From IMG/VR virus record IMGVR_UViG_3300036939_000082, positions 62,001-126,000 of that record: DNA of 64,000 nucleotides; one strand, given 5' to 3'. Below, piece by piece: positions 5,694 through 50,683 of this stretch. Below the pieces are notes generated by a model. The model did not search any database. It was not told the DNA's origin and saw only the letters and a list, made by a program, of their open reading frames with translations. The stretch's first letter is position 1. The number at the start of each line of letters is the position of its first letter. The stretch is from a virus. The position numbers were made by a program, and so were the translations under genes.

Positions 5694-5695
5694 TT

Positions 5696-6181
5696 TTAAC
5701 CCTCAAACCTAGAACCGCGAGGAGCCCTTACGTCGAGCCTGAAAATTCCTTGATCGGTGAAATCTTTCATGTCAACGATATAGTACGAAATGATGTCTGC
5801 TTCTGCCTCTGCTCTATCTTGCAAATAGACGGTAGGAACTATTTCTACATACCCAAATGAAGTAGAAATAGCTGGTACTTTAACGCCGGGAATTATCTCT
5901 TTTACGTGATGAAACAATTGCAGCTTTTTGAGTTGTGCAGTAATCAATCGAACACCAGCTCCGCTACAAAAAATATGTGTCGGTTTGATCGGCAATTTTG
6001 GTCGATACGCCGATCTTGTACAGATTTCGTCAATCTTGTCACAAATTACATCGGGATTATCGCTAGTGATGTCTGCTTCAAAAAGGTTACTAGCAGGTAT
6101 TTCAGCTACCATTCCGTTCAAAACAATCCGACATTCTACGACATCTAAGCTTTTTAGTAATTTGTCGTGGTTTTTGTTCAT
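5696..6181 (-). CDS. Truncated paralogue of the major capsid protein
   Basis: A 161-residue protein. From about residue 20 it aligns closely with the C-terminal half of the capsid protein encoded immediately upstream: it shares NGMVA, FCSGAG, VPAISTSFG, EIVPTVYLQD, DADIISYYIVDM and a final GIFRLDVRAPRGSRFEG. It lacks the first roughly 160 residues of the full protein and has an internal loss of about 50 residues just before the identical C-terminus. The frame is intact. It could be a decaying tandem duplicate, a minor capsid or vertex subunit, or a donor for gene conversion. Confidence 0.8.
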   Translation of the reverse strand: MNKNHDKLLKSLDVVECRIVLNGMVAEIPASNLFEADITSDNPDVICDKIDEICTRSAYRPKLPIKPTHIFCSGAGVRLITAQLKKLQLFHHVKEIIPGVKVPAISTSFGYVEIVPTVYLQDRAEAEADIISYYIVDMKDFTDQGIFRLDVRAPRGSRFEG

Positions 6182-6225
6182 AATCTTGTCCCGTTAAAGC
6201 CTCTTTCCTATCGTGATTGGCATTG

Positions 6226-7281
6226 TCAGCCCTCAAACCTAGAACCGCGAGGGGCTCTTACGTCGAGCCTAAAAATTCCCCGACCTTCGTCCATAGCTTT
6301 TGGAGTTCCGTAAAGAATAATCATTCTTTCTCGCAGGGTTGGCAAACCGTTCACTACGTGACTCAAGTCAAAAATCTGAGGTTCAAATTTTCTTTCGCCG
6401 CCGTATGGGTAAACGCCGAACCACGCAAAATTGTTCATATCGACGATATAGTACGAAATAATATCTGCATCTGGCTCAGCTTTGTCTTGCAAATAAACGG
6501 TAGGAACTATTTCTACTTCTCCAAACGAAGTAGAAATAGCTGGCACTCTAACGCCCGGAGTTATCTCTTTAACGTTGTGATACAGTTGCAACTGTTTAAT
6601 CTCTTTGGTAATCAATCGATTACCGGCTCCGCTACAAAAAATGTGTGTCGGATAGTGTTCGATCAGCGAATTTGGTCGATACGCCGACATCTGGCAAATA
6701 AGATCGATTTTGTCGTGAATTGCATCTGGATCGTCAGTGGTTATATCTGCCGTGAAAACGTTAGTTTCCGGCATTTGAGCTACCATTCCGTTGAAAGCAA
6801 GCGGGTTAACTCTTGCGTCTCCGGTAAATAAAGATCGTTCTAAAAAACGCATTGCCGACAAAATTAAATTGTCGGTATCTGTTGACATTTGATCGCCAAA
6901 AGCGTTTTTTTGCTGGTGGGCCATGCTCAGAGCAAAGTGTTCGCAGTGAATGCGCCCGACAATTGCTTTAACTTCTTGTCCGGGACCGTAGCCGAGGGAA
7001 ACTGGAGGTTGAGTGACAACGGCTTCTAAGTTTCCTCTAGGGGCAAACGCGACTGTCGGCAGCGAGGAACTAATCATTTCTTGGATGATCGGTGATGCTG
7101 CCGGAAGTTTTGTTTTAATTTTATTCCAAAACTTTGTAACTTTGACTCGGTAATCTCCAATAACAGGCAAATAATCTTGGCGGACTGCCAATCCACCAAG
7201 ATTGCTAGCTGCCGCTTGAATTGTGGAATTGTAGACTCCAAGAGGATTCTCAAAAGTGATTTCGCTTACGTGATTAGGCAT
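6226..7281 (-). CDS. Major capsid protein
   Basis: A 351-residue protein. The call rests on position (downstream of portal and protease/scaffold), size, and an HK97-fold-like layout: a long helical N-terminal region, then mixed alpha/beta with an FCSGAG...VPAISTSFGEVEIVPT segment typical of the P and A domains. It assembles the icosahedral shell. A terminator-like hairpin (7312-7338) whose T-tract lies about 20-30 bases before the ATG precedes it. The C-terminal half is duplicated in the next gene. Confidence 0.75.
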   Translation of the reverse strand: MPNHVSEITFENPLGVYNSTIQAAASNLGGLAVRQDYLPVIGDYRVKVTKFWNKIKTKLPAASPIIQEMISSSLPTVAFAPRGNLEAVVTQPPVSLGYGPGQEVKAIVGRIHCEHFALSMAHQQKNAFGDQMSTDTDNLILSAMRFLERSLFTGDARVNPLAFNGMVAQMPETNVFTADITTDDPDAIHDKIDLICQMSAYRPNSLIEHYPTHIFCSGAGNRLITKEIKQLQLYHNVKEITPGVRVPAISTSFGEVEIVPTVYLQDKAEPDADIISYYIVDMNNFAWFGVYPYGGERKFEPQIFDLSHVVNGLPTLRERMIILYGTPKAMDEGRGIFRLDVRAPRGSRFEG

Positions 7282-23824: not shown

Positions 23825-24103
23825 ATGAGAAGCATAAACGTCAAAATTTCTTGTTTCACAGGATACTGGATAGTTCCAAAATCTAATATTGAAAAGTTCA
23901 AGGAAACTGCCTTGTCAATACCCCGAACTAACGGGATAATCTTCGACGAATTTGCAGAAAGATTAAGACCTTTAGCAGAGGAATATGTGTCGGTTGGCGA
24001 AATAGCCAGACAGTGGAGAGAATGGAATTATAATATTCCAGAATTTGGTTCTAATAATTTCCCTAAAAACGACGCAAGTGTTGTAATAGACATACAGTCG
24101 TAA
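23825..24103 (+). CDS. Hypothetical moron protein
   Basis: A 92-residue protein read from the ATG at 23825 after a cassette-type leader; a longer frame from 23747 would overlap the Calx-beta gene and its promoter. It has a short N-terminal beta strand region (INVKISCFTGYWIVP) followed by helices. I do not recognise it. A strong terminator follows six bases after the stop. Confidence 0.6.
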   Translation: MRSINVKISCFTGYWIVPKSNIEKFKETALSIPRTNGIIFDEFAERLRPLAEEYVSVGEIARQWREWNYNIPEFGSNNFPKNDASVVIDIQS

Positions 24104-24109
24104 TTGTTA

Positions 24110-24151
24110 AAAAGTCCGCAACCTATTAATTTAGGTTGCGGACTTTTTTGT
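24110..24151 (+). terminator. Intrinsic terminator of the 23825 gene
   Basis: AAAGTCCGCAACCTA pairs with TAGGTTGCGGACTTT around a short loop, followed by TTTG. Confidence 0.85.
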
Positions 24152-24164
24152 ATTTGTTTTTATC

Positions 24165-24310
24165 TACGATCAAGTCAAAGTCAAGCAACTTTTCTGAGCT
24201 TTGAGAATCTCGATCGCCAGATCTAAATTTAACGACACCGAATCTAGAGCTGACACCCGATTTTCAAGTTCGGTGATTTGCCTCGACCGAGCAATCGCCT
24301 TTTTGCAGTT
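24165..24310 (-). pseudogene. Diverged remnant of the 3' end of a TIG-protein gene
   Basis: Read on the minus strand, this encodes SRQITELENRVSALDSV, then LNLDLAIEILKAQ and a stop. That aligns with the last about 45 codons of the intact gene at 24889-25707 (SRQISELEQRMMAMDSM, LNLDLAIAILKAQ). It has many silent and replacement differences, so it is an allele-like second copy rather than a fresh duplication. It has no start or upstream body. It and the intact gene end flank the inserted 24401 cassette. Confidence 0.75.
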
Positions 24311-24337
24311 AAAATATTTAATACATCGATTAATATC

Positions 24338-24366
24338 TTGTTTAATTTAATTACTTAAGTTATAAT
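24338..24366 (+). promoter_or_regulatory. Promoter of the 24401 gene
   Basis: TTGTTT (24338-24343), 17 bases, TATAAT (24361-24366). The boxes and spacing are identical to those at 684 and 1201. Confidence 0.7.
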
Positions 24367-24400
24367 ATAATTAAGTACAAATTAATCACAAAACAAACAA

Positions 24401-24775
24401 ATGGGAACTAAAACTCTAAAAATCCATGCAAACAAGGAAGATTTTCCATCTTCTGTTTCAACTGAAGAGGTCTTAAAACTCGTTGAACAAATGTGGGTTA
24501 ATTATGTCAAAAAAATACTCAAAGCTGTTCAAACAACAATTGAACTACCTAGCGAACGTTTGTCAGAAGAAGAATTAGATAAACTTTCTTCTGAAAGTTC
24601 ATTTGAATGTGATGTGTTTAAATGGAAATATTTAACACAAGATGAACCTACCTGTATAACAGGTAGTCTCGAAGTATCTTGTCCCGAGTGCACCCCAGAA
24701 ATCATTGGAAATCATTGGGGTAGCCCTAGCGAATACCCTTGGATTAAATTTTCAGAAAAAGTTTCTGATAAATAA
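24401..24775 (+). CDS. Hypothetical acidic moron protein
   Basis: A 124-residue acidic, soluble protein. It has CITGSLEVSCPECTP near residues 86-100, where two Cys in CPEC could be part of a metal site, but no second pair is seen. No family is recognised. It has its own consensus promoter, a leader without a Shine-Dalgarno sequence and a strong terminator, and it sits between the two copies of the TIG gene 3' end. Confidence 0.65.
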   Translation: MGTKTLKIHANKEDFPSSVSTEEVLKLVEQMWVNYVKKILKAVQTTIELPSERLSEEELDKLSSESSFECDVFKWKYLTQDEPTCITGSLEVSCPECTPEIIGNHWGSPSEYPWIKFSEKVSDK

Positions 24776-24833
24776 CTCAAGTCTTGAGATAACAGCCATT
24801 AAAGCACTAGCAAGTTAATAATGGTTAAATGAC

Positions 24834-24876
24834 AAAAAGCCTGCAATCTAAATCAATAGATTGCAGGCTTTTTTGT
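24834..24876. terminator. Bidirectional terminator between the 24401 and TIG genes
   Basis: AAAAAGCCTGCAATCTA pairs with TAGATTGCAGGCTTTTT. T-runs on both strands can end transcription of the convergent genes. Confidence 0.85.
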
Positions 24877-24888
24877 GTCAAATTTCGA

Positions 24889-25707
24889 TCAAAGCAAACT
24901 TAAACTGCTTCCTTGAGCCTTGAGAATCGCGATCGCCAGATCGAGATTCAACTGCATCGAATCCATTGCCATCATTCGCTGCTCAAGTTCTGATATTTGC
25001 CTCGACTGAGCGATCGCCATTGAACTCAAGCTACCGACCATTGCCATCAAAACATCTTGAGGTGTAGATTCTGGGGTTTTAAGTTCCCAGCGAATCCAAC
25101 TATTCGTCGCCATATCCCAATATTCAAATCCGTCGCCCACAGTCCTAAAAGTAGGATTCGGGACGGGATGCAAAACTTGGAACGATTCCGAATCCTCGCC
25201 TGCAACAGTTTTAACTTTTAACAGAAGGTTGCCCGGTTCGACAGCGGGAATTTTGACTCGAATTTTGCTCGAATCAATTACAGCAACGTCTGTAGCGGGT
25301 ACATCGCCAAAAAATACGGATGTCGCTGGTGTAAATCCGGAACCTTTAATCGTCGCGATCGCCCCGACAACAGGAGAATCCGCGCAAACAACCTTAATGC
25401 TGGGGGGAGGCTGCGGTTTTATCGGCGGGGGCGGTGGAGAAATTACAGAGTCGCTGTTGATCGCCACCCGTACTGCGTTGGACTTTACCCCGGCGCGATC
25501 GGCGACAACAAAGTAAGTTCCCGGAGGGACGGCTGGGACAACCGCCGAGATTTGAGTTTGGCTGTGGAATGTTGTCTTTAATTTTACAGTTTCCCCTAGC
25601 TGAATAAAAGTTTCCTTTGTAAATCCGCTGCCGTTAATCGCAATCCTTTTGTTTGGCAGTACCAGCCAAGGGGAGATTGACACAATGCGAAGAGGTTTAA
25701 GAATCAT
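24889..25707 (-). CDS. Two-TIG-domain tail protein
   Basis: A 272-residue protein. It has two IPT/TIG immunoglobulin-like domains: residues of about 5-85 (SPWLVLPNKRIAINGSGF) and 100-185 (SPVVGAIATIKGSGFTPATSVFFG, quoted in part), joined by a Pro-rich PPPPPIKPQPPPS linker. The C-terminal 70 residues are a helical segment (SRQISELEQRMMAMDSM). Such Ig-like domains decorate phage tails and can bind carbohydrates. The gene follows the tube gene by one base, so it is probably a tube- or baseplate-associated protein. Confidence 0.75.
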   Translation of the reverse strand: MILKPLRIVSISPWLVLPNKRIAINGSGFTKETFIQLGETVKLKTTFHSQTQISAVVPAVPPGTYFVVADRAGVKSNAVRVAINSDSVISPPPPPIKPQPPPSIKVVCADSPVVGAIATIKGSGFTPATSVFFGDVPATDVAVIDSSKIRVKIPAVEPGNLLLKVKTVAGEDSESFQVLHPVPNPTFRTVGDGFEYWDMATNSWIRWELKTPESTPQDVLMAMVGSLSSMAIAQSRQISELEQRMMAMDSMQLNLDLAIAILKAQGSSLSLL

Positions 25708-31828: not shown

Positions 31829-32139
31829 TTAAAGTGAAAAATACGCCTGAACATTATTACGCAATCGCCGAAATAGTCAGATCGTTCACACCGTTAGCGC
31901 TTACAGCCGCTGGAGCAGGAGTAGCTATTTACGTTATTACTGCAACAAACTTGTCCTCCGAAAAGTTTGCAATCGCCATTGGCGTTGCAAGTTCAGCATT
32001 AACAGGTGCTTGCGGTACTTACAATCCCCAGTCAAAAGAAAGAAGACAAGAACAAACACGAGTAGGTCATATCGATCGAGTAGATATTGAGCAAACTGTT
32101 GAAGAGAATGAAAGTGAAAATAGGGGTGATCGGTTATAA
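31822..32139 (+). CDS. Holin-like two-span membrane protein
   Basis: A 105-residue protein with two hydrophobic segments (about residues 19-40: FTPLALTAAGAGVAIYVITA, and 47-66: KFAIAIGVASSALTGACGTY) joined by a short polar loop, and a charged, hydrophilic C-terminal tail. This matches class II holins. It overlaps the 31-residue membrane gene. The GH24 lysozyme would need such a pore. An assigned holin role is inference from topology and context. Confidence 0.55.
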   Translation: MVVKVKNTPEHYYAIAEIVRSFTPLALTAAGAGVAIYVITATNLSSEKFAIAIGVASSALTGACGTYNPQSKERRQEQTRVGHIDRVDIEQTVEENESENRGDRL

Positions 32140-32739
32140 GAAATCATGAAAATTATACAAATTAATTTCTAGTTTAATTGGAAAAAAATGATATAATTCA
32201 ATTTTTCCTTTTCTTTCAATTTTTAAAATATGCAAACTAGGAGCTTGAATGTCGTCCGTTATATAAACAGCTTTAGTTATTTCATTTGTGCCTAATATAG
32301 TAGTTAGGGAGTTTTTTGCAGATTCTAGCGTTAGGTTTGTTATTTTATTAATAAAACCAATCAAATGCGGAGTAATTACAAAAAAGATTTCATTTGTATT
32401 TTCTGAAGATTGAAACTTATTGCAAATCAAATAGTTGTAGCAACAACCTCTATTGGTATAATTATTTTGTACTGTCTCAGTACATATTCTTATGCAAATC
32501 TTTAATTGCACAAAACTAGAAAAAAGTGCGTTACAAAGTTCATTATCAATGTAAAAATAATCTTGTTCATTAAACCCTTCCAAAGCAATAACGCAATTAA
32601 AAGCTTGCTCATCAAACTTATGAAATTTCAATTCATTTTTGTCTCTTGTAACGTCATAAAAGTGTAGTTGGACTTTTTCTGCCATTTGTTCTGCGATTTC
32701 AGGTGATTCGGGTGATTTAAATTTTACTGTTTTTAGCAT
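32134..32739 (-). CDS. KFD-family protein, tandem copy
   Basis: A 201-residue protein, read from the ATG at 32739 (MLKTVKFKSPES), which matches the start of its three homologues; the extended frame from 32757 would run through a remnant of the adjacent gene. It shares with the copies at 32847, 36849 and 50150 a core: an N-terminal strand, a helix, N.LkF.KFD..AF.cv.ALEG.n (about residues 42-60). No named domain. The extended upstream DNA is a second copy of the ATPase 3' end, showing a tandem duplication. Confidence 0.7.
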   Translation of the reverse strand: MLKTVKFKSPESPEIAEQMAEKVQLHFYDVTRDKNELKFHKFDEQAFNCVIALEGFNEQDYFYIDNELCNALFSSFVQLKICIRICTETVQNNYTNRGCCYNYLICNKFQSSENTNEIFFVITPHLIGFINKITNLTLESAKNSLTTILGTNEITKAVYITDDIQAPSLHILKIERKGKIELYHFFPIKLEINLYNFHDFL

Positions 32740-32742
32740 TTT

Positions 32743-32822
32743 TGTCGTTCTCCCCAAATTATTGCTTCCTGTATTCGGTTCATCGTTTCAATTATAGCAT
32801 TAAAATTTACAACCTCAATCAA
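32743..32822 (-). pseudogene. Remnant of the AAA ATPase gene 3' end
   Basis: Read on the minus strand, this encodes IEVVNFNAIIETMNRIQEAI followed by IWGE, matching the last about 24 codons of the ATPase gene (IEVVNFDAVIEAMNRIQEAI, IWGE) with three replacements. It lies immediately before the second KFD gene, exactly as the real ATPase end precedes the first. A segment containing ATPase tail plus KFD gene was therefore duplicated or acquired as a diverged allele. Confidence 0.8.
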
Positions 32823-32846
32823 GATGTGATCGGTTGTAGGAAATTG

Positions 32847-33437
32847 TTAAAACTGTTCTCGTCCCCAATGAATTGTTAGATCGGTCGGAAAAAAACGATA
32901 TAATTTCGTTTCTCCGTTTCTTTCGATTTTTAGTATGCGATGCAACGTAGGTTCTTCAAAAGAAGAATCTCTTATACAAATAGCGCTTGTTACGGAATCT
33001 ATAATTGGGATAGGTTCTAAAATATTTTCTGCAATTCTTTTTATTAGAGTAGCAAAAAAAAGTAATTCAGGATTAATGACTAAAGGAATTTCATCCATCA
33101 TAGTTCTTGAAATTTGAAAAGTATTGCAAACTAAAAGTCTAAAGTGATGACAAGATGTTCGAGTAGTATTACATATTGCTAACTCTAAAATAATTCGAGG
33201 CTCTCTATGATGATAAACAGGTGCTATCCAACTTTCTTTGTTATCAACAAAAGAATAATCTCGCCAACTAAGATTTTCCAAAGCAATAACGCAATTAAAA
33301 GCTTGTTCATCAAACTTGTAAAATTTCAATTCATTTCTGTCTCTTGTAACATCATAAAAATATGATTGAATTTTTTTGGTCATTTCTTCCGCTAATTCAA
33401 GTGATTCAAGCGATTTAAATCTTACTATTTTTAGCAT
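32847..33437 (-). CDS. KFD-family protein, copy next to the ATPase
   Basis: A 196-residue protein from the ATG at 33437 (MLKIVRFKSLES); a longer frame to 33455 overlaps the ATPase stop. It follows the ATPase stop by five bases, so the two are translated from one message. It shares the KFDEQAFNCVIALE core with the neighbour (about 60 percent similar by eye) and more distantly with 36849 and 50150. The second half carries IPLVINPELLFFATLI and a Trp/Tyr-rich end. Function unknown. Confidence 0.7.
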   Translation of the reverse strand: MLKIVRFKSLESLELAEEMTKKIQSYFYDVTRDRNELKFYKFDEQAFNCVIALENLSWRDYSFVDNKESWIAPVYHHREPRIILELAICNTTRTSCHHFRLLVCNTFQISRTMMDEIPLVINPELLFFATLIKRIAENILEPIPIIDSVTSAICIRDSSFEEPTLHRILKIERNGETKLYRFFPTDLTIHWGREQF

Positions 33438-33442
33438 TTCTA

Positions 33443-34045
33443 TTATTCTCCCCAAATAATTGCTTCCTGTATTCGATTCATTGCTTCAATTACAGCATCA
33501 AAATTTACGACTTCAATTCCTGACTCAGTTACTTCATTGCATTCTAACTGAAACACGCTAACTTCTATTTGTTTAGTGTTGTAAGCTTTGACTCTATTTG
33601 GACAAATGAACTCCGAACAGTCGTAACCTTCTTTTTTTGCAAGTTTCATTAGATAAGCAGTAGTAACACTAAACATAATCAGCGTATTAAGTTCTTTTAC
33701 TATATAATCGCTGTTTGTTGCTACTACTACTTTTACTCCTAGATTTACAATTTTTGCAATAAGCCGAGCCATTCTTCGTTGGTTTTCTGGATGCAGTCCC
33801 AATTCAGGGGTATCTAATATAAGAATAAAATCAGTGCTACCAAAAGGTTCTTTGAATTGAAAAGCTAATTCAAAAAAGTCTTGCGCCCTTTTAGCCTCCA
33901 AGCATTTAGAACCTTTTACGGATGTACCGATCGCGCGAATTAGCGAAGATTTTCCAGTACCGTTCGACCCACAGACAACCGTAAGATCTCCTAACTCTAT
34001 TTCAATATCGCCAAAAGCAGGTAGAGTGGTAATTGAAATTTTCAT
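33443..34045 (-). CDS. Minimal AAA/ABC-type ATPase
   Basis: A 200-residue ATPase of the AAA_15/AAA_21 (OLD/RloC-related) type. Walker A is GSNGTGKSS (residues 26-34), Walker B is ILILDTPE with Asp78 and Glu81, followed by LGLHP. The usual H-loop (T-H-S) reads T-N-S at 110-112. It is far shorter than family members (about 300-600), lacking a visible insertion with the ABC signature and any nuclease domain. It is followed by KFD proteins and preceded by a small CxxC protein, so this looks like a compact multi-gene module, possibly anti-host defence or DNA metabolism. Confidence 0.75.
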   Translation of the reverse strand: MKISITTLPAFGDIEIELGDLTVVCGSNGTGKSSLIRAIGTSVKGSKCLEAKRAQDFFELAFQFKEPFGSTDFILILDTPELGLHPENQRRMARLIAKIVNLGVKVVVATNSDYIVKELNTLIMFSVTTAYLMKLAKKEGYDCSEFICPNRVKAYNTKQIEVSVFQLECNEVTESGIEVVNFDAVIEAMNRIQEAIIWGE

Positions 34046-36502: not shown

Positions 36503-36823
36503 ATGCTGCTCAAAATTCAACTTCCGCAACAAGAGAAAAAACATATAAATTTGCCAAATGGACTTACTTTTGTCTGTGAAGTAATAGGTTCCTCAACCGA
36601 AAATTTACAACAAACAGCATGGATTATCAATCCAGAAAGCTTAGCACTTAGTTCTTCTTATTCTCTTGAAAAGAGTTCATTGGTAAAATTTCTATCATTG
36701 ATACTTGTAAGAAAAGAGGATGTTTTTAAATTAATAGTTTATTCAAAAACAAACTGGGATGATAACTGCGACACCCTTGATGTCATTTCGGTGGAAGAAG
36801 TTTTTGGTTTTCCAGCTATTTAG
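36503..36823 (+). CDS. KIQLP-family protein, copy 1
   Basis: A 106-residue protein. It is homologous to the genes at 37406 and the pseudogene at 37963: L.KIQLP.Q.K at the start, a central N.t/eF.. strand, then LSLILV.KedvFkL.V and a final LDVsSVeEVFgFP. It has a -10 TATAAT (36471-36476) and an AAC-rich leader. The three copies, in order, each have their own leader. No named domain; perhaps a small beta-rich protein. Confidence 0.6.
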   Translation: MLLKIQLPQQEKKHINLPNGLTFVCEVIGSSTENLQQTAWIINPESLALSSSYSLEKSSLVKFLSLILVRKEDVFKLIVYSKTNWDDNCDTLDVISVEEVFGFPAI

Positions 36824-36848
36824 CTATAGACGAGAAGATCGATTGAAT

Positions 36849-37238
36849 ATGTTAGTTAAAAATGTTGAAAAAGTAATTGAATTTGATTCATTGGATGTTG
36901 CAAAAAAAGTTGTGTCTCACCTACATCACGTCGAAATTGATATCACTGCCGATCGCGCGCTGTTGAAATTCATCAAATTTGATGGCGCAGCTTTTGATTT
37001 AGCGCGAGCGTTAGAAGGAGTGGGACTAACAGGATGGAAGATTTTAAATACAGTTAAATTTTCTCAACCTATAGCTCGCTGCTTTCCTATTTTTGAAATT
37101 AGTCTCGATCCGAATACAATTCAAGAACTTACAAATTGTTTTTCTCGAATAGAGAAAGCCATACTAGCTGTTTCATTTCAGATGTACAAATCTCAACGTT
37201 TAACAGAACTTGTTTCTAGGGAAGACGAACTAAACTAG
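36849..37238 (+). CDS. KFD-family protein, short copy
   Basis: A 129-residue protein from the ATG at 36849; the longer frame from 36759 overlaps the previous gene. It shares the family core (FDSLDVAKKVVSHLHHV, LLKFIKFDGAAFDLARALEGV, quoted in pieces) with 32134, 32847 and 50150. It is shorter, missing the C-terminal third of those proteins, so it may be truncated. It lies 25 bases after a KIQLP gene, without a separate promoter visible. Confidence 0.6.
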   Translation: MLVKNVEKVIEFDSLDVAKKVVSHLHHVEIDITADRALLKFIKFDGAAFDLARALEGVGLTGWKILNTVKFSQPIARCFPIFEISLDPNTIQELTNCFSRIEKAILAVSFQMYKSQRLTELVSREDELN

Positions 37239-38874: not shown

Positions 38875-39735
38875 CTACAACAAAAAATCGCTAGTAAACA
38901 AGTCAAAGTTATTGAGTCCTATAAATTTAAACTCTTCAAACTTGTCCCGCGAGTTAAAAACGTTGTGCAATTTGATGACGTTAGACGATCGCTCGATTAC
39001 CGACAAACATTCTAACGGTACGCTGTTTACCACAAATTGATTGTTTGTAGTTAGGATGAATTGAACTGGCGATCGATTGCTATATTCTACTAAATACTTA
39101 GTGATAAGAGGTGAAGATTCATAGTCTAGCTTGCATCCAAAGTCATCGACAACAACAGTTTTAGGTGTATCTGTTGGAGGTTCGCGAAGAATTAAGCCTT
39201 TGTTCGGACTTGTCCCAAAATCGTAAAATTTTAGTGAGTCAGCCCAAAGATATAATAATCTTAAAAACGGATATTGAGCATAGCGATACTGGATATAATT
39301 TTCAGGTTGCGCTATTACGGTTTTTGTTTTGTGGGCTTGAAATTTAACGTCTTCTTGTAAATTTTCCGCATAAACGGTACTTTCGCCTGACTGGTTCCTA
39401 TCTAGTAATACTAGCAAAATATACCTGCTTGCATCGCTGCATACAATCAACTGTTCTTTGCTTACAAAACCTTCTTGTATTTTAAGCAAGTATTCTATGC
39501 GGTAGCCTGGTTTGCCAGTATCGAACAATAGACGCCATTCGTGATTTTCTGTTTCAACAATTTCGACTCCCCTAAGTAGTTCTGTTAACCTACCTATTGC
39601 TTTTAAAAGCCTAGATTTGCCACTGGCATTTTTACCTACAATTAAATTAAGTTGACCAAATTGACATTTCTCGATTCGCCATTCATTCGTTAAACCTTGG
39701 TTGGCGATATACTCAAAGGTGATTAAGTTCTTCAT
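38875..39735 (-). CDS. AAA/ABC-type ATPase
   Basis: A 286-residue ATPase started at ATG 39735. An upstream extension to 39765 is encoded by a neighbouring repeat and is rejected. Walker A GKNASGKS is at residues 34-41, Walker B TVVVDD at 193-198 has Asp-Asp in place of the usual Asp-Glu, and TTNNQ at 229-233 replaces the H-loop His with Asn. A C-terminal effector domain is missing. It is related in type to AAA_15/OLD ATPases. Its second acidic residue and H-loop suggest altered hydrolysis. Its 5' end is next to the TnpB element. Confidence 0.75.
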   Translation of the reverse strand: MKNLITFEYIANQGLTNEWRIEKCQFGQLNLIVGKNASGKSRLLKAIGRLTELLRGVEIVETENHEWRLLFDTGKPGYRIEYLLKIQEGFVSKEQLIVCSDASRYILLVLLDRNQSGESTVYAENLQEDVKFQAHKTKTVIAQPENYIQYRYAQYPFLRLLYLWADSLKFYDFGTSPNKGLILREPPTDTPKTVVVDDFGCKLDYESSPLITKYLVEYSNRSPVQFILTTNNQFVVNSVPLECLSVIERSSNVIKLHNVFNSRDKFEEFKFIGLNNFDLFTSDFLL

Positions 39736-39781
39736 TCGGCAAGCCCTGATTGGCGATATACTCAAAGGTGATTAAGTTCTT
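39701..39781. repeat. Two diverged copies of the ATPase 5' end
   Basis: A 32-base word (39701-39732) that encodes codons 2-11 of the ATPase is repeated exactly at 39750-39781. Similarity continues into the next codons with silent changes (Asn-Gln-Gly-Leu written with different codons), so the distal copy is an allele-like remnant, not a fresh duplication. The distal copy abuts the right end of the TnpB element. Confidence 0.8.
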
Positions 39782-39784
39782 GAC

Positions 39785-39860
39785 CATCCACCCCGACCTA
39801 AAGGTGCGGGGATTCCCAATTATCACTAATTGGATTTCTGCTTCGTAGCACCAGCCTTTC
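39785..39860 (-). ncRNA. Putative omega RNA of the TnpB element
   Basis: TnpB nucleases use an RNA made from the gene's 3' end and right end. Here it would end with the CCCCG..CGGGG hairpin and the terminal GGTCAAG; the guide would be the flanking DNA, which begins AACTTAATCACCTTTGAG (39763-39780, minus strand), the 5' end of the ATPase gene remnant. The RNA boundaries are by analogy. Confidence 0.5.
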
Positions 39861-41001
39861 GAGACTTACACTCTTCGGGTCTTACGGTCGCTCCACAGAC
39901 TGAAACGGCTAGCCCAGCCGCCAAAATATTTTTTGCCGCATTAATGTCGCGGTCATGCTTCGTTCCACAATCAGGACATTTCCATTCCCGGATACTTAAG
40001 GGCATTTTTTCAACAATGTGACCGCAGTTTCCACAACGCTTAGAACTGGGAAACCAGCGGTCTATTTTTATCAAGTCGCGTCCGTACCAGTCACACTTGT
40101 AACTTAGCTGGCGAATTAATTCACCCCAGCTAGCGTCACTGATAGCAAAGGCTAACTTGTGGTTCTTTACCATGTTCTTGATGGCTAAATCTTCAACTAC
40201 AATCGTTTGGTTTTCACGAATGAGTTGAGTCGTTAGCTTGTGAAGAAAATCTTTGCGGACATCGACTATCTGCGCGTAGACTTTGGCGACTCGTTTCCGA
40301 GCCTTTTCCCGATTATTGCTGCCCTTCTGCTTCCTTGCTAAATCTTTTTGCTTTCTCTTCAGCTTTTTCCGAAGCTTTTTAAAAGTTCTTGGATTAGCGA
40401 TTTTGTCGCCGTCGCTAGTAGCAATCAGACTGGTGATTCCCATATCCAGTCCGATTGTTTTCTTTATTTTAGGAAACGGTTGAATTGTATAATCGTCTAC
40501 CAATATAGAGACAAACCAAAGACCCGCAGGCGTCAATTTTACCGTAATAGTAGACGGGATGCACCCTTGAGGAATTTGTTTGCTCCAGCGAATTGGGAGC
40601 GGTTCACTGCATTTAGCTAAAAAAACCTGTCCGTTCTTCCAACGGAAGGCAGACTTGGTAAATTCAGCGCTACCACCGTTATGCTTTTTTTTGAAATTAG
40701 GATACTTGGCTCGCCCTGCAAAAAAGTTGGCGAACGCTGCCTGAAGATGGCGAAGTCCCTGTTGGAGGGGAACGCAGCTAACTTCATTCAGAAAATCGAG
40801 TTCTTCTTCTTTCTTCCAGTGCGTTAGCATTGAAGAAGTTTCACCGTAACCCACTCTTTCTTGGCGCTCGTACCAAGATTCTGTTCGGTAAACCAAAGCC
40901 TTGTTGTACACCAACCGAGTACATCCTATTGTCCGTCGCAAGAGGTTTTCTTGCTCGATAGTTGGGTAAAATCGGTAGCGATAGGCTTTTTCCATCTTCA
41001 C
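39826..41001 (-). CDS. tnpB: TnpB RNA-guided nuclease (IS605 OrfB)
   Basis: A 391-residue protein with complete RuvC motifs: GLDMG (Asp186), VVED (Glu270) and HDRDIN (Asp352), plus a zinc ribbon with CGNC (Cys323, Cys326) and CPDC (Cys342, Cys345). The N-terminal YRFYPT and LVYNKAL are typical. It cuts DNA next to a TAM, guided by an RNA from its right end, and helps keep the element in place. All catalytic residues are present, so it is likely active. An alternative start is at 40995 (MEKAYRYR). Confidence 0.9.
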   Translation of the reverse strand: MKMEKAYRYRFYPTIEQENLLRRTIGCTRLVYNKALVYRTESWYERQERVGYGETSSMLTHWKKEEELDFLNEVSCVPLQQGLRHLQAAFANFFAGRAKYPNFKKKHNGGSAEFTKSAFRWKNGQVFLAKCSEPLPIRWSKQIPQGCIPSTITVKLTPAGLWFVSILVDDYTIQPFPKIKKTIGLDMGITSLIATSDGDKIANPRTFKKLRKKLKRKQKDLARKQKGSNNREKARKRVAKVYAQIVDVRKDFLHKLTTQLIRENQTIVVEDLAIKNMVKNHKLAFAISDASWGELIRQLSYKCDWYGRDLIKIDRWFPSSKRCGNCGHIVEKMPLSIREWKCPDCGTKHDRDINAAKNILAAGLAVSVCGATVRPEECKSRKAGATKQKSN

Positions 41002-41110
41002 AGTCTAACACGTCTTTTGTGATGTTCTTGGCTGTGTGTTGTATATTTTTGTAAAGCCGTTCTAGAAGGACGGGGTTTCCACCCACTTTTTTTGATGATT
41101 TTACTTGAAA

Positions 41111-42645: not shown

Positions 42646-43134
42646 ATGTCTAAAGCAATGGTATCATGGTTCGATCAATTTCCAGAATATAATGGTCAGA
42701 AAATTGAAATCCGAGGCAAGTATGGGTATGTCTCGGTTCGAGATATTAGCAAAGCACTCGGAAAACGATTCAACAACTGGACTAGAACCCAATTTGCAAA
42801 AGACGTGTTAGAAGAACTTTCACTTTTAACGGGTCTGCCCGTCGCTAATGCTGACACAGAATTAGCGATCAAGAGCGACTACTCAGAAATGAGTAGTCGC
42901 TCAAAAGCTTTGATAGACTACGTTAGAGGCGATGAAGGATCTATTTTTGTTCATCCATCAGTAGCGTTCGCTTATTCAATGTCAGATGCTCGATTTTTTG
43001 CTCGGATCAGTCTGTGGTTGTCGCAAATGCAGGAATTTGGGACAGTAAACCCCCACGTTAAAGATTGGACTCAAGAGGAATTTCGTCGCGGGCTACAATT
43101 TAACCGCGACGACATTGACGAACTAAACAGTTAG
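42646..43134 (+). CDS. KilA-N domain protein
   Basis: A 162-residue protein with a good GGAGAG Shine-Dalgarno sequence. The core GKYGYVSVRDISKALGKRFNNWTRTQF (in pieces), EGSIFVHPSVAFAYSMS and WLSQMQEF match the KilA-N DNA-binding domain (HxxxAxxxAxWxSxxF type, here HPSVAFAYSMSDARFFARIS). These proteins are common in phages and often regulate or antagonise host processes. The C-terminal helix may be a dimer or binding region. Confidence 0.8.
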   Translation: MSKAMVSWFDQFPEYNGQKIEIRGKYGYVSVRDISKALGKRFNNWTRTQFAKDVLEELSLLTGLPVANADTELAIKSDYSEMSSRSKALIDYVRGDEGSIFVHPSVAFAYSMSDARFFARISLWLSQMQEFGTVNPHVKDWTQEEFRRGLQFNRDDIDELNS

Positions 43135-43172
43135 CCCGATCGCCCGCCCGCATCCAAAAACTAAACACACGC

Positions 43173-43206
43173 CCCGTCAGGGTTCCCTCTGGCGGGTTTT
43201 TTATTT
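43173..43206 (+). terminator. Hairpin copy 1 before the spike-start copy
   Basis: CCCGTCAG...CTGGCGGG stem and TTTTTTATTTTT run directly into an ATG. Almost the same hairpin occurs at 43356-43378 and 44029-44051. Confidence 0.65.
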
Positions 43207-43208
43207 TT

Positions 43209-43330
43209 ATGAGCTTTGAATCAAAAATAACCCCAGAAAAAGTTCAAGCAACGCATATTAAAGAAGGATTTGTGATGGGCTGGATGCCCGGAGTAATTGT
43301 AGATGTAAACGATCCAGAGAAAATCGCCCA
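43209..43330 (+). pseudogene. Second copy of the spike gene 5' end
   Basis: The first about 40 codons (MSFESKITPEKVQATHIKEG ... DVNDPEKI) are the same as those of the spike gene at 44064, with several silent base changes. After codon 39 the frame runs through a terminator copy (43356-43378) and into the 43440 gene in the same reading frame. So this is a promoter-proximal remnant or acquired allele edge, not a gene by itself. Confidence 0.85.
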
Positions 43331-43355
43331 CCGCCCGAAAAATCAAACACTCGCC

Positions 43356-43382
43356 CCACCAGGGTTTCCCTCTGGTGGTTTT
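43356..43382 (+). terminator. Hairpin copy 2, after the spike-start copy
   Basis: CCACCAGGGTTTCCCTCTGGTGG followed by TTTTACATT. It lies before the promoter of the inserted gene. Confidence 0.7.
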
Positions 43383-43439
43383 ACATTAAAATGCAAAATA
43401 AAATATGCTAGAATAGTTTCAAAACTAACAGAAAGAACA

Positions 43440-43904
43440 ATGATAGAACACTTAATGATTCAATCCAGATTGTCAGCCATGCTATTTTCTGGATCAATAA
43501 AGTACAGCGATACTCCGCTACCCAGTTCTTTTTTTTCGACTATTTTAATCGGTGGATGCGATGACATTGGAACGTATACTGAGACAACTTACGTGAAAAA
43601 GGTACTGTATTCAACATCAAGCCTTACTTGCTTTGCTTTTGAAGTTGTTGCCGACTTGACTAGACTTTACAGATTAGAGCAAAAAGATAAATACGGTCAT
43701 TCGATGGCACAAATATCTGAATCAGACAAAAAAGGTGTGGTTTTATTGGCTACTCCAATACAAAGCTTTAGTGAATTTGAAGAATTATGGTATTGTGATT
43801 ATACCGAATTACTCATTAAATCTTTAGGTGATTTACCAATAATTAGGACACTGTCTGAACCAATGGTAGCCGTGCGTGAAGAATCTTCCTTGTTGTATTC
43901 ATAA
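43440..43904 (+). CDS. Hypothetical moron inserted before the spike gene
   Basis: A 154-residue protein from the ATG at 43440. A TAGAAT -10-like box (43409-43414) and a GAAAGAACA leader precede it. It happens to be in frame with the spike-start copy upstream, but a terminator and promoter separate them. Residues of about 60-110 contain alternating strands and helices. No family is recognised. It lies between two copies of the spike 5' end, so it is an insertion. Confidence 0.6.
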   Translation: MIEHLMIQSRLSAMLFSGSIKYSDTPLPSSFFSTILIGGCDDIGTYTETTYVKKVLYSTSSLTCFAFEVVADLTRLYRLEQKDKYGHSMAQISESDKKGVVLLATPIQSFSEFEELWYCDYTELLIKSLGDLPIIRTLSEPMVAVREESSLLYS

Positions 43905-43911
43905 AAATTAA

Positions 43912-43962
43912 CACTCTTCAACCTAAAGGTACGAAGATTCTTTGTTTTATGTGTTGACTTGC
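43912..43962. mobile_element. IS605-type hairpin end remnant
   Basis: CTTCAACCTAAAGGTACGAAGATTC at 43916-43940 (key words CTTC...ACCTAAAGGT...GAAG) has the same loop as the TnpB element right end (CCCC...ACCTAAAGGT...GGGG, then ATTC) but different stem bases that still pair. A TTGAC lies at 43953-43957. No transposase gene is present. It may be a relic or a related RNA-forming end. Confidence 0.5.
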
Positions 43963-44028
43963 TTAGGTAGGATTACTCTAAATCCAGGGTTCTGAATATA
44001 TCCAACAAAAAAAAACTAAACACTCGCC

Positions 44029-44063
44029 CCGCCAGGGTTTCCCTCTGGTGGTTTTTTATTTTT
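44029..44063 (+). terminator. Leader hairpin before the spike gene
   Basis: CCGCCAG / CTGGTGG stem, with TTTTTTATTTTT ending directly at the ATG at 44064. No promoter or Shine-Dalgarno sequence fits in between. Confidence 0.65.
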
Positions 44064-47000
44064 ATGAGTTTTGAATCCAAAATAACCCCAGAAAAAGTCC
44101 AAGCGACGCATATCAAAGAAGGATTTGTGATGGGCTGGATGCCCGGAGTAATTGTAGACGTGAACGATCCAGAGAAGATCGGTCGCGTTAAAGTCAAGTG
44201 CGAACTGCTTTCTGAAACCACCAATATGCCGAACGAAGATGACGGCTGGGTTTGGGTGACGGAAGAGTTCACTGCAAATGGCGTACCCGGTGGCTCCCAC
44301 CGTCCGCTAGCTGAGGGTACGTTAGTTGCTTTGATTCCGATGTTTGGCGACCCTACAAAACTGTTAGTATTTGGCTGTTTGCCGAACCGAGTCGATCGCC
44401 CGCATCCAGATTTTGACAGATCGCACGGAGTTACTGGCAGCGCATCGGCGGGCGGCACGATCGAAATCAACAACGACAAAGACGGTTCCTATTTCAAAAC
44501 TTTTGCGAGCAAAGCCGTACAGTCGGTGTCTGGCGACGGTTCTATCCTTCAGGAGTCGCCGGGGAAGGCTAGAGTTCACTTGATGAAAGACGGCGCTGCT
44601 AGCGTTGAAAACGACAATGCCAGCTTTACCGCCTCGCCGGAAGGCAGCTTAAACGCGCGATCTCTCGGCGGTGCCACTATCAATTTGAACAAGGACGGAA
44701 CGCTGTCGATCGCCTGCGCCGAAAAATCTCAGTTGAGCCTGAACAGCAAAAACGCACATTTAGAAGGACCCCTGCGCCGCCATTCGCGCTTGCTTGCTGA
44801 AGCTAGGGGATTTTTGTCGGCAGATTTAGATCGAGGCGTCAAGCTTCTGAAAAAGTTAGAAAAATTAACTGAAGGTTTTGAAACCGGAACGTTCGGCACA
44901 TCGCATTACATTTACGAGGCTGACGGAATTTTGCAGGGGTTGCGAGATGGAATAGCTGTCAACCTGCCAAAAGGAATTGCTATTTTACAAGAACTAAAGT
45001 CTGCTCCTGCTGTCGATTTGGGCGAAAGTTTAGACGGTCAACTGCGCGAAGCTCTGAGGATCGAGTTAGACAAAATAGTTAACATTGCGGAGAAATCGGT
45101 TGCCAAGGACAAACCTGGAAGCGCGATCGTCGCCACCGCGCTGGGGATGATACCGAAGGATCTCAAGAAACTGCTGGCACTATTAGACGCTGAAGAAAAA
45201 AAAGCGCTGTTTGCTAGGCTGGACGCGATCGTCCCCACATTAGATGCGCTGAGGTACGACGTTGTTTTGCAGAAGGAAGCACTAATAGCCGAGATAGTTC
45301 CCAACGGCTGGCATTCGATCGACGCGATCGTCAAAATGCGCTTGCAAGACAAAATCAAAGGAATGGAAGATACTATTAATCCCAAACCGGAGCGCTTAGA
45401 AAAATTTACAATCAAAAAAGAGAAAGAATGGTGGGACGAGCTGCCGGAAAGAGTGCAAGGGGCGATCGGGCAACTCGGGGAATACTCTGAATTCGCTAAA
45501 GGCAATATGGGCATTTACCAGTTGCACAAAGGCGACGAAACCTTGACAGAACAAGCAGTTTCCCGCGTGTTCAGCAACCAAGATTTAAAAGCTGCTAAAT
45601 TCTTGACAAAAGAACAGCTAGCCGACAAAGACCGAGAAGCCAAACAAATTGAAGAAGACAAAAAAAATGTGGACAAGTTGGTTCCCGGCGAATCTCCGCT
45701 ATCAACTTTGTTTGGTGAAGTTATTCAGGGCTTGATCGAAAAAACCGAGAAAACCTTAAATGCAGTATTGAAAGGACAGAAAAGTATTAAAGGAATTGCA
45801 CCGCTAGAACACTTAGCGTTTCTGCTGCTTCGAGACGACGTACTCTTTAACAAAAATATATTAGTTGAACCGCTCAAAGAAGTTGGTAAACATTTTGAAG
45901 TAGCCAATAACTCTTCTGAGGACATCCTGCAAAACTCTGTAGAAAAAGTATTGCCTAAAGCTTGCAAGGAATTGGCGCAAAAATTGATTCCAATCCTAGA
46001 GTCGGCGATCGACGATTACGGCAAATTACTTCGCGCCGTTCCCGACGAACCCAAGGGTGCAAGGATTACAGCCCGCGAAACCTACGTGCAGATGGAGTCA
46101 AATCGCGGCGACAAAGGGGCGATCGCCCGCATTGGCAAAGAAGGTGCTCAGATAATGGGACCGGAGTTTGCTCCCAACCTTCGAGTATCTATGTACGCCG
46201 ACAAAGCCGGCGGAGGTATGAACGCGGGAGAAAAAGGCGGCGGAGTTCGAGTTGAGCGGCGGATGGCAGAGATTCTAGGACCGGAACGCAAAGACGGAGA
46301 GTTGCCGGAGCGGGAGGAAGACAAGCCTGGAACAGGTAAAAAAGGCGGTCGCAAGTTATTTTCCGAAGGGCAGCGGCGGAAGCAAGGCGGCGAACAGGAC
46401 AAAGCTACAAAGCGACCGAGGTACGACGATTTAGAAGAAAAAGACCGGATGGTGCGGACTTCCTTGTTTGCTGACGCTTACGGCGGCGCTGGAACTTTGT
46501 CGGGAGGGCGCGGAGCCGGTTCGATCGTCCACCTAGAAAAAGCCGAGACTTTCGGTCCAGAAATTGAATTGGACGGTAAAAAACTGCGGACTGGCAGTTT
46601 TGTCTTCGCTCAGGAAGCGGGAAGCGAGGCTGCCGACGGTGCGATATCTTACGTTGCGCGCGATCGGGCTGAAGTTCTCGGACCGGAAAGAGCTGAGGGC
46701 GAGTTCAAAGACGAACAAGACGAACCCCCCGCTAGCGATAAAGATGGGTTTGATTTTGACCTCAAGTCGGTCAAGTTTAAGAAGGGGGGCGATCGGGAAG
46801 AAGGTAAAACCGGAAAATTTGCAGATCCGGAAGCTAAGAAAAAATTGAGAACTTGTCTGTTTGCCGATCGGAAAGGACTGGTTGGCGGCAAGTCCGGCGG
46901 GGACGGAGCTTGTTTTTCAGCAGACGAAACCAAAAGCGGAATGCACGGACCGGCGATCGAAATTGAAGGCAAAAAAACTCGGTCTGGGATGCAAGCAGCT

Positions 47001-48476
47001 CCCGAAGAAACGGCTATGTTTGCTCCTGGCGACGGAGCTATGACTGTTGTTGGAGCCAACCGCGCTGAAGTTCTGGCTCCTGTTCGCAATGACGGCACTC
47101 ACGACGACGACGATTACGAACCGCCTAGCGACCTCGGTGGGTTTAAATTTAATCCCTTGGTTGCAAGATCGATGGAAAAAGGAGGTAGCGCAAAAGAGAA
47201 GCAGTTGGAAAAGCCTAAAGAATCCAAATTAAGAAGCTCTATGTGCGCTGAAAAAAATGGAACCGTGTCGATGAAATCTGGTGGCGACGGCGCTTGCAGT
47301 TTTGTCGATCCGGTGAAAAGCGGAATACTCGGTCCAGCTATTGAGAAGGAAGGGAAAAAAGTCAGAACAGAACTGTTTGCGTGGGAAAACGACATCGGCA
47401 TGAAAGGAGCCGGCGAGAAAGCGGCAATCAGCTACGTGAGCGAAAAAATTGGGGAGTTGCTGGGACCGCAAGTCGAAGATGCGATCGGGGAATTGATCCG
47501 TACCAACATTTTTGCTGATGAAAAGTCGGCAACTGTCTGGGCCGGAGGCAAGGATGGAGCGATGACCGTCGTGACTCAAGAGCTTGCCAAGATGCTCGGT
47601 CCGTCGGGCAAAGGTTTGTTGGAAATGGTAAAAACTTACTCTCAATTTGTAGGCGCAGACGGAGTTTCTAAATTGAAGCTTGCCGAGAAAGTTGCTGAAC
47701 TGTTGGGACCTGACGGAAAAAAAGCGATGCAAATCGGCATGGATTTTGTGAAGCTGCTAGGACCCGGCGGATCTCAAATGGCGATGGCAGAACATGGATT
47801 GAAGCTTTTAGGAATCGACGGCAAATCGGGGCTTCAGATGTTGGGTAAAGTAACTAAGCTGTTGGGACCCGGCGGCAAGGTTTCTCTAAGCATCAGTCCG
47901 AAAAAGTTGCTGTCCAAGGGTCTGGGCGGCGTACTCAGCATGGGCGGATCTGGAACATCGCTGTCGTCGATTGGCACAACTGTATTCCGCAACGGCTCTG
48001 AGGATGGTTCTAAGGGTGTGGGAGTATTGCTCGATCCAAAGAGTGGCTTGCTGTCGCTAAGTTCGTTTTTCTCGGGCGACCACAATAAGCCCCCGGCTGC
48101 GACCGACGAAGATAACGACAATGACGACGATAAGCCCGAAGAACCGATCGCCTGGAACCATCAATCTGCTAGGGTAGCGCTTCAAGGGCGCAACGCACAC
48201 ATCCAATCGTTCGACGAAGACGGCTCGTCTTGCAACGAAGTTCTGTGTACGCCGGATGCCGTTTATGTTCAGGGAAAAAAGATTGTGGTGCGATCGCTCT
48301 CAGACCCTGAAGAAGGAGAAGAACCGGAAACACTGCACGAGATCGAGGTTAGCGAAGATGGGGTATTAATTGATGGTGTTAATCTTTCGATTTTGAGCGA
48401 AATTCAGTCGTTAATAAGTTCGATACTTTCTAGGCTTATTTTTCTGGAGTCATCAATGGGTTCTTCTAGTAGATAG
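44064..48476 (+). CDS. Baseplate spike / hub protein with OB fold (gpV / gp5-like)
   Basis: A 1470-residue protein. Residues 20-115 form the OB-fold domain of phage baseplate assembly proteins (VIVDVNDPEKIGRVKVKC, DGWVWVTEEF, LAEGTLVALIPMFGDP, LVFGCLPN). A central helical domain (about residues 245-680) has coiled-coil and acidic stretches. From about 700 to 1310 there are repeated units with a recurring (L)GP motif, probably an elongated trimeric beta structure. It would tip the tail and pierce the envelope. At 1470 residues it is far longer than typical (200-600). No lysozyme domain is seen. Confidence 0.8.
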   Translation: MSFESKITPEKVQATHIKEGFVMGWMPGVIVDVNDPEKIGRVKVKCELLSETTNMPNEDDGWVWVTEEFTANGVPGGSHRPLAEGTLVALIPMFGDPTKLLVFGCLPNRVDRPHPDFDRSHGVTGSASAGGTIEINNDKDGSYFKTFASKAVQSVSGDGSILQESPGKARVHLMKDGAASVENDNASFTASPEGSLNARSLGGATINLNKDGTLSIACAEKSQLSLNSKNAHLEGPLRRHSRLLAEARGFLSADLDRGVKLLKKLEKLTEGFETGTFGTSHYIYEADGILQGLRDGIAVNLPKGIAILQELKSAPAVDLGESLDGQLREALRIELDKIVNIAEKSVAKDKPGSAIVATALGMIPKDLKKLLALLDAEEKKALFARLDAIVPTLDALRYDVVLQKEALIAEIVPNGWHSIDAIVKMRLQDKIKGMEDTINPKPERLEKFTIKKEKEWWDELPERVQGAIGQLGEYSEFAKGNMGIYQLHKGDETLTEQAVSRVFSNQDLKAAKFLTKEQLADKDREAKQIEEDKKNVDKLVPGESPLSTLFGEVIQGLIEKTEKTLNAVLKGQKSIKGIAPLEHLAFLLLRDDVLFNKNILVEPLKEVGKHFEVANNSSEDILQNSVEKVLPKACKELAQKLIPILESAIDDYGKLLRAVPDEPKGARITARETYVQMESNRGDKGAIARIGKEGAQIMGPEFAPNLRVSMYADKAGGGMNAGEKGGGVRVERRMAEILGPERKDGELPEREEDKPGTGKKGGRKLFSEGQRRKQGGEQDKATKRPRYDDLEEKDRMVRTSLFADAYGGAGTLSGGRGAGSIVHLEKAETFGPEIELDGKKLRTGSFVFAQEAGSEAADGAISYVARDRAEVLGPERAEGEFKDEQDEPPASDKDGFDFDLKSVKFKKGGDREEGKTGKFADPEAKKKLRTCLFADRKGLVGGKSGGDGACFSADETKSGMHGPAIEIEGKKTRSGMQAAPEETAMFAPGDGAMTVVGANRAEVLAPVRNDGTHDDDDYEPPSDLGGFKFNPLVARSMEKGGSAKEKQLEKPKESKLRSSMCAEKNGTVSMKSGGDGACSFVDPVKSGILGPAIEKEGKKVRTELFAWENDIGMKGAGEKAAISYVSEKIGELLGPQVEDAIGELIRTNIFADEKSATVWAGGKDGAMTVVTQELAKMLGPSGKGLLEMVKTYSQFVGADGVSKLKLAEKVAELLGPDGKKAMQIGMDFVKLLGPGGSQMAMAEHGLKLLGIDGKSGLQMLGKVTKLLGPGGKVSLSISPKKLLSKGLGGVLSMGGSGTSLSSIGTTVFRNGSEDGSKGVGVLLDPKSGLLSLSSFFSGDHNKPPAATDEDNDNDDDKPEEPIAWNHQSARVALQGRNAHIQSFDEDGSSCNEVLCTPDAVYVQGKKIVVRSLSDPEEGEEPETLHEIEVSEDGVLIDGVNLSILSEIQSLISSILSRLIFLESSMGSSSR

Positions 48477-50149: not shown

Positions 50150-50683
50150 ATGAGAAAAGTCGTTATACTGCGATCCGCAGAAGATGCTAAAAAAATAGCA
50201 TCACACCTTTACAATGTCGATCGCGCCAACAATCATCTGATATTCTCTGACTTCGATCCGAGTGCTTTTAAATGTGTTGTTGCATTAGAAGGTTTAAATG
50301 AAAAATCGTATGAATATTTTGTTGGAACCATTTTACTAGAGGTAAAACTTTCTAATAAGTTATACTCGCTGAAACTTCCTGTCAAACGTAGAGTTAGCGG
50401 TAACGTAGATTCTTCGGGTTATGACGATTTTACGTTATTTTTAACCCCTGAAGTGTTGTCTATGGCTGAAATAGTGCAAAATTTTCCAAATTGTTTTCGT
50501 TGGCAAATAGGTGCTTCAGTTCTCGATGTTGATCATACGCCATTTATAGATATTGACTACGTGGCATTTTTAATAAGGTGGAATGATGATATCTGCAATT
50601 ATCATTTATTTATTAGCGACAAAAAGAAATCTGGACTTTTTTCACTTTTTGGCGTACAACAATTTACTTTTGAAGATGTTTGA
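50150..50683 (+). CDS. KFD-family protein, single copy
   Basis: A 177-residue protein homologous to 32134, 32847 and 36849: VVILRSAEDAKKIASHLYNV, NNHLIFSDFDPSAFKCVVALEGLNEKSYEYF (quoted in pieces). The C-terminus has a distinctive CNYHLFISDKKKSGLFSLFGV. It has its own -10 (TATAAT at 50123-50128) and a leader with no Shine-Dalgarno sequence. It shows that the family exists apart from the ATPase. Function unknown. Confidence 0.65.
   Translation: MRKVVILRSAEDAKKIASHLYNVDRANNHLIFSDFDPSAFKCVVALEGLNEKSYEYFVGTILLEVKLSNKLYSLKLPVKRRVSGNVDSSGYDDFTLFLTPEVLSMAEIVQNFPNCFRWQIGASVLDVDHTPFIDIDYVAFLIRWNDDICNYHLFISDKKKSGLFSLFGVQQFTFEDV

What the first reader, a model, noticed from the sequence alone, without database searches (positions are those of the whole stretch)
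43173..44183. Inserted gene bracketed by two copies of the spike gene start and its hairpin
The first about 40 codons of the spike are present at 43209 and again at 44064 with silent differences, and the T-rich hairpin is present three times (43173, 43356, 44029). Between lies a gene with its own promoter (43440). The copies differ by silent changes, so this is not a fresh tandem duplication but two alleles of the same edge. Insertion by recombination between related phages, using the spike start as homology, would give this result and leave the real spike intact.
Basis: partly seen in the sequence, partly recalled or inferred. Interest (0 to 1): 0.7.

Follow-up and report, generated by a model that had tools for sequence, protein, structure and literature searches.

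The report
Phage gene insertion with duplicated edges
A small unknown gene sits just before the tail-spike gene of a large virus that probably infects cyanobacteria, between two slightly different copies of the spike gene's first 39 codons, most likely because two related viruses recombined imprecisely there; this is a clear example of a known way in which phages gain genes.

Summary
Window 43156-43326 repeats at 44011-44181 (hairpin plus the first 39 spike codons). All 8 coding differences are silent third-position changes. The hairpin occurs a third time (43338-43387), and between lies an orphan 154-aa gene, X (43440-43904).

The one relative found (R, IMGVR_UViG_3300035684_000001) has the empty site: KilA-N gene, one hairpin, spike.

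Polarised by R, the orphaned copy A has five private changes, all silent (P about 0.0009 without selection). It was therefore still a working spike start until recently, or it is still translated. Copy A joins the hairpin-2 leader at 4 nt (ATCG). The leader resembles the KilA-N 3' flank, so this is a microhomology join, not an exchange within the spike start.

Between X and hairpin 3 lies a previously unseen relic of an IS200/IS605 tnpB right end (43908-43940, minus). Two intact TnpB elements, one in each phage, also sit next to an allelically different copy of a neighbouring gene edge.

Best explanation (0.55): one-sided recombination between related phages, as documented for phage T4. A 231-aa fusion of the spike start with X remains possible. 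Known kind; moderate interest.

The parts
42646..43134 (+). KilA-N domain gene, conserved left neighbour
   Evidence: Pfam KilA-N E=1.8e-8; 97% aa identity to R
43156..43205 (+). hairpin 1 (stem 43173-43196) with T-run, terminator-like
   Evidence: shares ACACACG, loop length and CTGGCGG with R's single hairpin
43209..43325 (+). copy A: orphaned first 39 codons of the spike gene
   Evidence: 8 silent differences to copy B
43323..43337 (+). junction: ATCG microhomology (43323-43326), then a leader CCCACCGCCCG resembling the KilA-N 3' flank
   Evidence: sequence against R 5905-5950
43338..43387 (+). hairpin 2 (stem 43356-43378)
   Evidence: 93% to hairpin 3 over 45 nt; in-frame TAA of hairpins 1, 3 and R absent here
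43440..43904 (+). gene X, 154 aa orphan; in frame with copy A (ORF 43209-43904, 231 aa)
   Evidence: no match in Pfam, PHROGs, NCBIfam, PADLOC, viral contigs, genome contigs, phages or plasmids; coding signal
43905..44010 (-). relic of an IS200/IS605 tnpB 3' end; right-end hairpin motif GAATC..CTTTAG..GTGTTAA at 43908-43940 (minus)
44011..44060 (+). hairpin 3 (stem 44029-44051) upstream of the real spike
44064..48476 (+). intact spike / baseplate hub gene (1470 aa); 44064-44180 is edge copy B
   Evidence: Phage_base_V E=4.6e-4, below the curated cut-off; PHROG 430 baseplate hub / tail lysozyme E=5e-5

Best explanation
Gene X arrived by imprecise recombination between two related phages. Parent 1 had KilA-N, hairpin 1 and spike allele A. 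Parent 2 carried hairpin 2, gene X, a tnpB element (now a relic) and hairpin 3 between KilA-N and spike allele B. In the recombinant, parent 1's spike was broken after codon 39 and joined through 4 nt (ATCG) to parent 2's DNA just upstream of hairpin 2. Everything to the right, including a complete spike, came from parent 2, so the spike stayed intact and 39 codons of allele A were stranded upstream of X. Shown: the duplicated edge, the silent-only divergence, the empty site in R, the microhomology junction and the tnpB relic. Inferred: the donor phage, the direction of transfer, and a double-strand break as trigger.
For: Empty site in R. Copy A's 5 private changes are all silent; 24.6% of random mutations would be, so P about 0.0009. 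The A-B third-position divergence (8/39) approaches that to R (10-12/39), so the two alleles are old. The junction shows 4-nt microhomology and a KilA-N-3'-like leader before hairpin 2. Parallel cases in the same phages: window 39738-39783, an extra ATPase-gene start beside TnpB, has 2 differences to R and 5 to its own neighbour over 42 nt. R's extra spike 3' end beside TnpB is 82.7% identical to the window's spike end and 75.5% to R's own. T4 precedent for one-sided, microhomology-joined double-strand-break repair: PMC2988022.
Against: With the only known homologue, A and B are closest to each other (10 shared sites against R), as an in-place duplication would also give. No phage carrying hairpin 2 - X - hairpin 3 without copy A, or spike allele A whole, was found (8 viral scans and 2 genome scans used). 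Synonymous divergence to R shows no clear step at the junction.
Confidence: 0.55

Rival explanations
1. In-place duplication within one lineage: a tandem duplication between ATCG upstream of hairpin 2 and ATCG at spike codon 39-40, then loss of the first X by recombination between hairpins, leaving a stranded spike start that has since diverged.
For: A and B are closest to each other among known homologues. ATCG is present at both breakpoints. Hairpins 2 and 3 are 93% identical over 45 nt.
Against: A stranded fragment should gain amino-acid changes; A has 5 private changes, all silent (P about 0.0009). Hairpin 1 shares three features with R that hairpins 2 and 3 lack. It needs extra steps.
Confidence: 0.22
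2. Copy A is not debris. The 231-aa ORF 43209-43904 is a real gene in which the spike's start signal and N-terminus are fused to X, and selection on the fusion keeps A's residues constant.
For: The frame is open from A through hairpin 2 into X. Hairpins 1, 3 and R's hairpin have TAA in that register and hairpin 2 does not; a 38-codon linker would be open in 15% of resamplings, about 5% counting the frame match. A shows purifying selection.
Against: X has its own ATG at 43440. The terminator-like hairpin 2 lies inside the fusion. The 39 residues are only part of the predicted OB domain. Recent arrival explains the silent-only pattern equally well. No homologue of the fusion is known.
Confidence: 0.15
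3. Assembly chimera of two co-occurring strains.
For: The record is a virus contig from IMG/VR, and alleles about 8-10% apart would have to coexist.
Against: The A / hairpin-2 junction shares only 4 nt, too little for a k-mer join. Similar edge duplications occur in an independent contig (R), and the same repeat-bounded architecture occurs at other loci.
Confidence: 0.06

Closest known systems
[quoted passage not shown] 1999, as reviewed in PMC2988022)
   Same: Homologous on one side, joined at microhomology on the other; inserts DNA with co-converted flanks from a related phage.
   Different: There an intron endonuclease makes the break. Here no break was shown, and the only nuclease trace is a dead tnpB relic.
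PeSLs, promoter plus stem-loop cassettes of T4-type phages (Arbiol et al. 2010, Comeau et al. 2014; papers not held, described in PMC4503421)
   Same: Repeated stem-loop terminators border novel genes and are thought to mediate shuffling between related phages.
   Different: No promoter above chance was found after the hairpins. The hairpin occurs only at this locus in the window. The repeated unit also includes 39 codons of a structural gene.
Gene-bordering repeats and TnpB-only IS200/IS605 elements in Campylobacter phages CP220 and CPt10 (PMC2853527)
   Same: Discrete genes bordered by repeats proposed as recombination substrates; related TnpB elements at different sites in sister phages.
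   Different: Those repeats are dedicated repeat units, not allelic copies of a structural gene's edge.
TnpB-driven gene drive of IS200/IS605 elements in plasmids (PMC11870625); nuclease genes at phage exchange boundaries (PMC10448857)
   Same: An RNA-guided or homing nuclease next to conserved genes can bias inheritance of its flanks.
   Different: TnpB activity was not tested here, and PMC10448857 does not mention TnpB.

Membership tests
Insertion by one-sided recombination between related phages | a relative with the uninterrupted (empty) site | tested here: met
   R: KilA-N, one hairpin, spike
Insertion by one-sided recombination between related phages | junction at microhomology on one side | tested here: met
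   ATCG at 43323-43326; leader beyond resembles the KilA-N 3' flank
Insertion by one-sided recombination between related phages | edge copies trace to different phage lineages | tested here: inconclusive
   only one homologue found; A and B group against it, although A's private changes are all silent
PeSL cassette | stem-loop terminator repeated around a novel gene | tested here: met
   three copies
PeSL cassette | early promoter adjoining the stem-loop | tested here: inconclusive
   4 promoter-like sites against 4.4 expected
PeSL cassette | same cassette at many intergenic sites | tested here: not met
   motif only at this locus in the window; the edge repeat occurs at no other place in the whole record
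IS200/IS605 (TnpB) insertion, for 43905-44010 | right-end hairpin GAATC..CTTTAG..GTYAA preceded by TnpB C-terminal codons | tested here: met
   relic carries in-frame stops
IS200/IS605 (TnpB) insertion, for 43905-44010 | left end, intact tnpB or tnpA | tested here: not met
   only about 100 bp remain; no tnpB ORF here
Homing by TnpB | nuclease cuts the empty allele | not testable with these tools
   needs a biochemical assay

The most novel reading that the evidence does not exclude
TnpB elements act as RNA-guided homing drives in crosses between these phages: they cut the empty allele of conserved genes, and survivors are recombinants repaired one-sidedly that keep the gene whole and carry an allelic copy of its edge. 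The spike-start duplication with its tnpB relic would be a fossil of such an event. In both intact cases the duplicated edge begins right at the TnpB right end (within one base), i.e. it is the predicted guide sequence.
Probability: 0.15. Interest if true: 0.65.

Novelty: new member of a known kind. Interest (0 to 1): 0.35.

Why it matters
The locus preserves an unusually readable gene-gain event: two alleles of one gene edge, a microhomology junction and the empty site in a sister phage. If the TnpB link holds, it would suggest that RNA-guided transposon nucleases drive gene exchange among phages as homing endonucleases do, which could be tested in phage crosses.

Tried and rejected
Looked for more spike homologues by four protein or profile scans of viral contigs and genome contigs and by tblastn against phage records: only R. 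Two KilA-N relatives (L017, L018) carry no detectable spike. Gene X: no homologue in any library or collection; the single-sequence AlphaFold model is uninformative (pLDDT 37), so no fold search was run. No Rfam match. Hairpin and junction patterns occur in no viral contig. A TnpB / edge-duplication association was tested over 34 unmatched segments of at least 150 bp in the window-R alignment: 3/3 with TnpB against 10/31 without, one-sided P 0.048. It was post hoc, and two further TnpB insertions elsewhere in the record lack clear edge duplications, so it was not accepted. Sharp amino-acid divergence from R in spike codons 41-110 (about 30%, against 5% and 0% on either side) was considered as the mark of an allele swap, but third-position divergence barely rises there, so selection is as likely.

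Full report
The window is bases 62001-126000 of a 188,942-bp virus record. The many GCGATCGC-like motifs and the cyanobacterial TnpB matches point to a cyanobacterial host; this is inference. The gene called spike (44064-48476) begins with a baseplate/injector OB domain (Phage_base_V E=4.6e-4, below the curated cut-off; PHROG baseplate hub / tail lysozyme E=5e-5).

Observation. A 171-bp direct repeat, 43156-43326 and 44011-44181, holds a hairpin with a T-run and the first 39 spike codons. The coding parts differ at 8 positions, all third positions, none changing an amino acid. The hairpin occurs a third time at 43338-43387. All pair well; several stem differences keep the pairs (CCACCAG/CTGGTGG, CCGCCAG/CTGGTGG, CCGTCAG/CTGGCGG). 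Gene X, 43440-43904, is coding by statistics but has no known relative. The proposed promoter is not better than chance.

Empty site. One relative, R (IMGVR_UViG_3300035684_000001, 188,553 bp), is about 80-87% identical over most of the window. It has the KilA-N gene, one hairpin and the spike, without X or a second start.

Age and selection. Using R to polarise the differences, copy A has 5 private changes, copy B 3, and 10 sites separate both from R. About a quarter of random changes in this stretch would be silent, so five of five silent changes in a free-drifting fragment has P about 0.0009. Copy A therefore evolved as coding sequence until recently. That fits either recent arrival from a phage in which it was a real spike start, or continued translation as part of the 231-aa ORF 43209-43904.

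Junction. Copy A ends at GAGAAAATCG and continues with CCCACCGCCCGAAAAATCAAACAC, which resembles the KilA-N 3' flank of R (GATCGCCCACCCGATCGCCCGCC...AAAAATTAAACAC) and not the spike. The join thus lies in 4 nt of shared sequence. Hairpins 2 and 3 share the T of the CTGGTGG arm, a longer loop and ACTCG, whereas hairpin 1 shares CTGGCGG, the shorter loop and ACACG with R; two other sites group hairpin 1 with hairpin 3. The simplest history has two steps: hairpin duplication around X in one lineage, then joining of that block to a phage with hairpin 1 and spike allele A.

TnpB relic. Between X and hairpin 3, the minus strand reads VILPKQVNT-stop-NKESSYL-stop, followed by a right-end hairpin ending GTGTTAA, three bases from the stop codon of X. 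It matches TnpB C-termini and right ends in R, elsewhere in this record, and annotated TnpB genes on cyanobacterial plasmids. The right-end motif occurs twice in the window: here and at the intact TnpB.

Other edge duplications. In the window, an intact TnpB (39829-41001, minus) is followed directly after its right end by an extra 49-bp copy of the start of the neighbouring ATPase-like gene. Over 42 nt that copy has 2 differences to R and 5 to the copy beside it. In R, a TnpB after the spike is followed directly by an extra 104-bp spike 3' end that is nearer the window's allele (82.7%) than R's own (75.5%; alignment). These show that stray allelic edges from the other lineage do occur in these phages. 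Two further TnpB insertions elsewhere in the record show no clear edge duplication. The association within the window is weak (P 0.048, post hoc), so a causal role for TnpB is only a hypothesis.

Mechanism. The best fit is one-sided recombination: homologous on the spike side, microhomology on the KilA-N side. A review of T4 mobile elements describes such one-sided events with microhomology junctions (PMC2988022). Repeated stem-loops bordering novel genes are known from T4-type phages as PeSLs (described in PMC4503421), but the promoter and the wide repetition were not found here.

Limits. By its literal criterion the two copies are closest to each other. The silent-only pattern is the main reason to prefer recombination over simple duplication, and a functional fusion would explain that pattern too: hairpin 2 alone among the four hairpins lacks an in-frame TAA, and the open, in-frame link has a chance probability of about 5%.

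Noticed in passing
window 39732-41092 (minus): Intact TnpB element whose right end is followed directly by an R-like extra copy of the neighbouring ATPase gene's start, joined to the native start at a 5-nt ATGAA.
   Followed up: yes
L003 10631-12140 (phage R): TnpB directly after the spike, followed by a second TnpB 3' end, a right-end hairpin, and an extra spike 3' end nearer the window's allele than R's own.
   Followed up: yes
window 5691-7281 (minus): A 161-aa ORF is a partial, internally deleted second copy of the 351-aa gene next to it (probable major capsid protein); R has a degenerate counterpart.
   Followed up: partly
window 44184-44393: Spike codons 41-110 differ from R in about 30% of residues, against 5% before and 0% directly after, with little rise at third positions; possible diversifying selection.
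   Followed up: partly
G000:C1:166867-168919 (L028): A third TnpB inserted cleanly inside a segment that is inverted relative to R.
   Followed up: partly
G000:C1:177667-179241 (L029): A 524-aa TnpB whose usual stop is lost, so that the frame reads on through the right-end region into further sequence.
   Followed up: no
G000:C1:47536-47574 (L014): Another isolated TnpB right-end relic, 90% identical to the one beside gene X.
   Followed up: partly
window 32134-33455, 36759-37238, 50150-50683: Small genes sharing a similar motif (DRNELKFHKFDEQAFNCVIALEGLN-like) look like a family of paralogues scattered over the window.
   Followed up: no
window 24101-25021: Partial extra copy of the end of the gene at 24889-25707; R carries several further pieces of the same region.
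   Followed up: no
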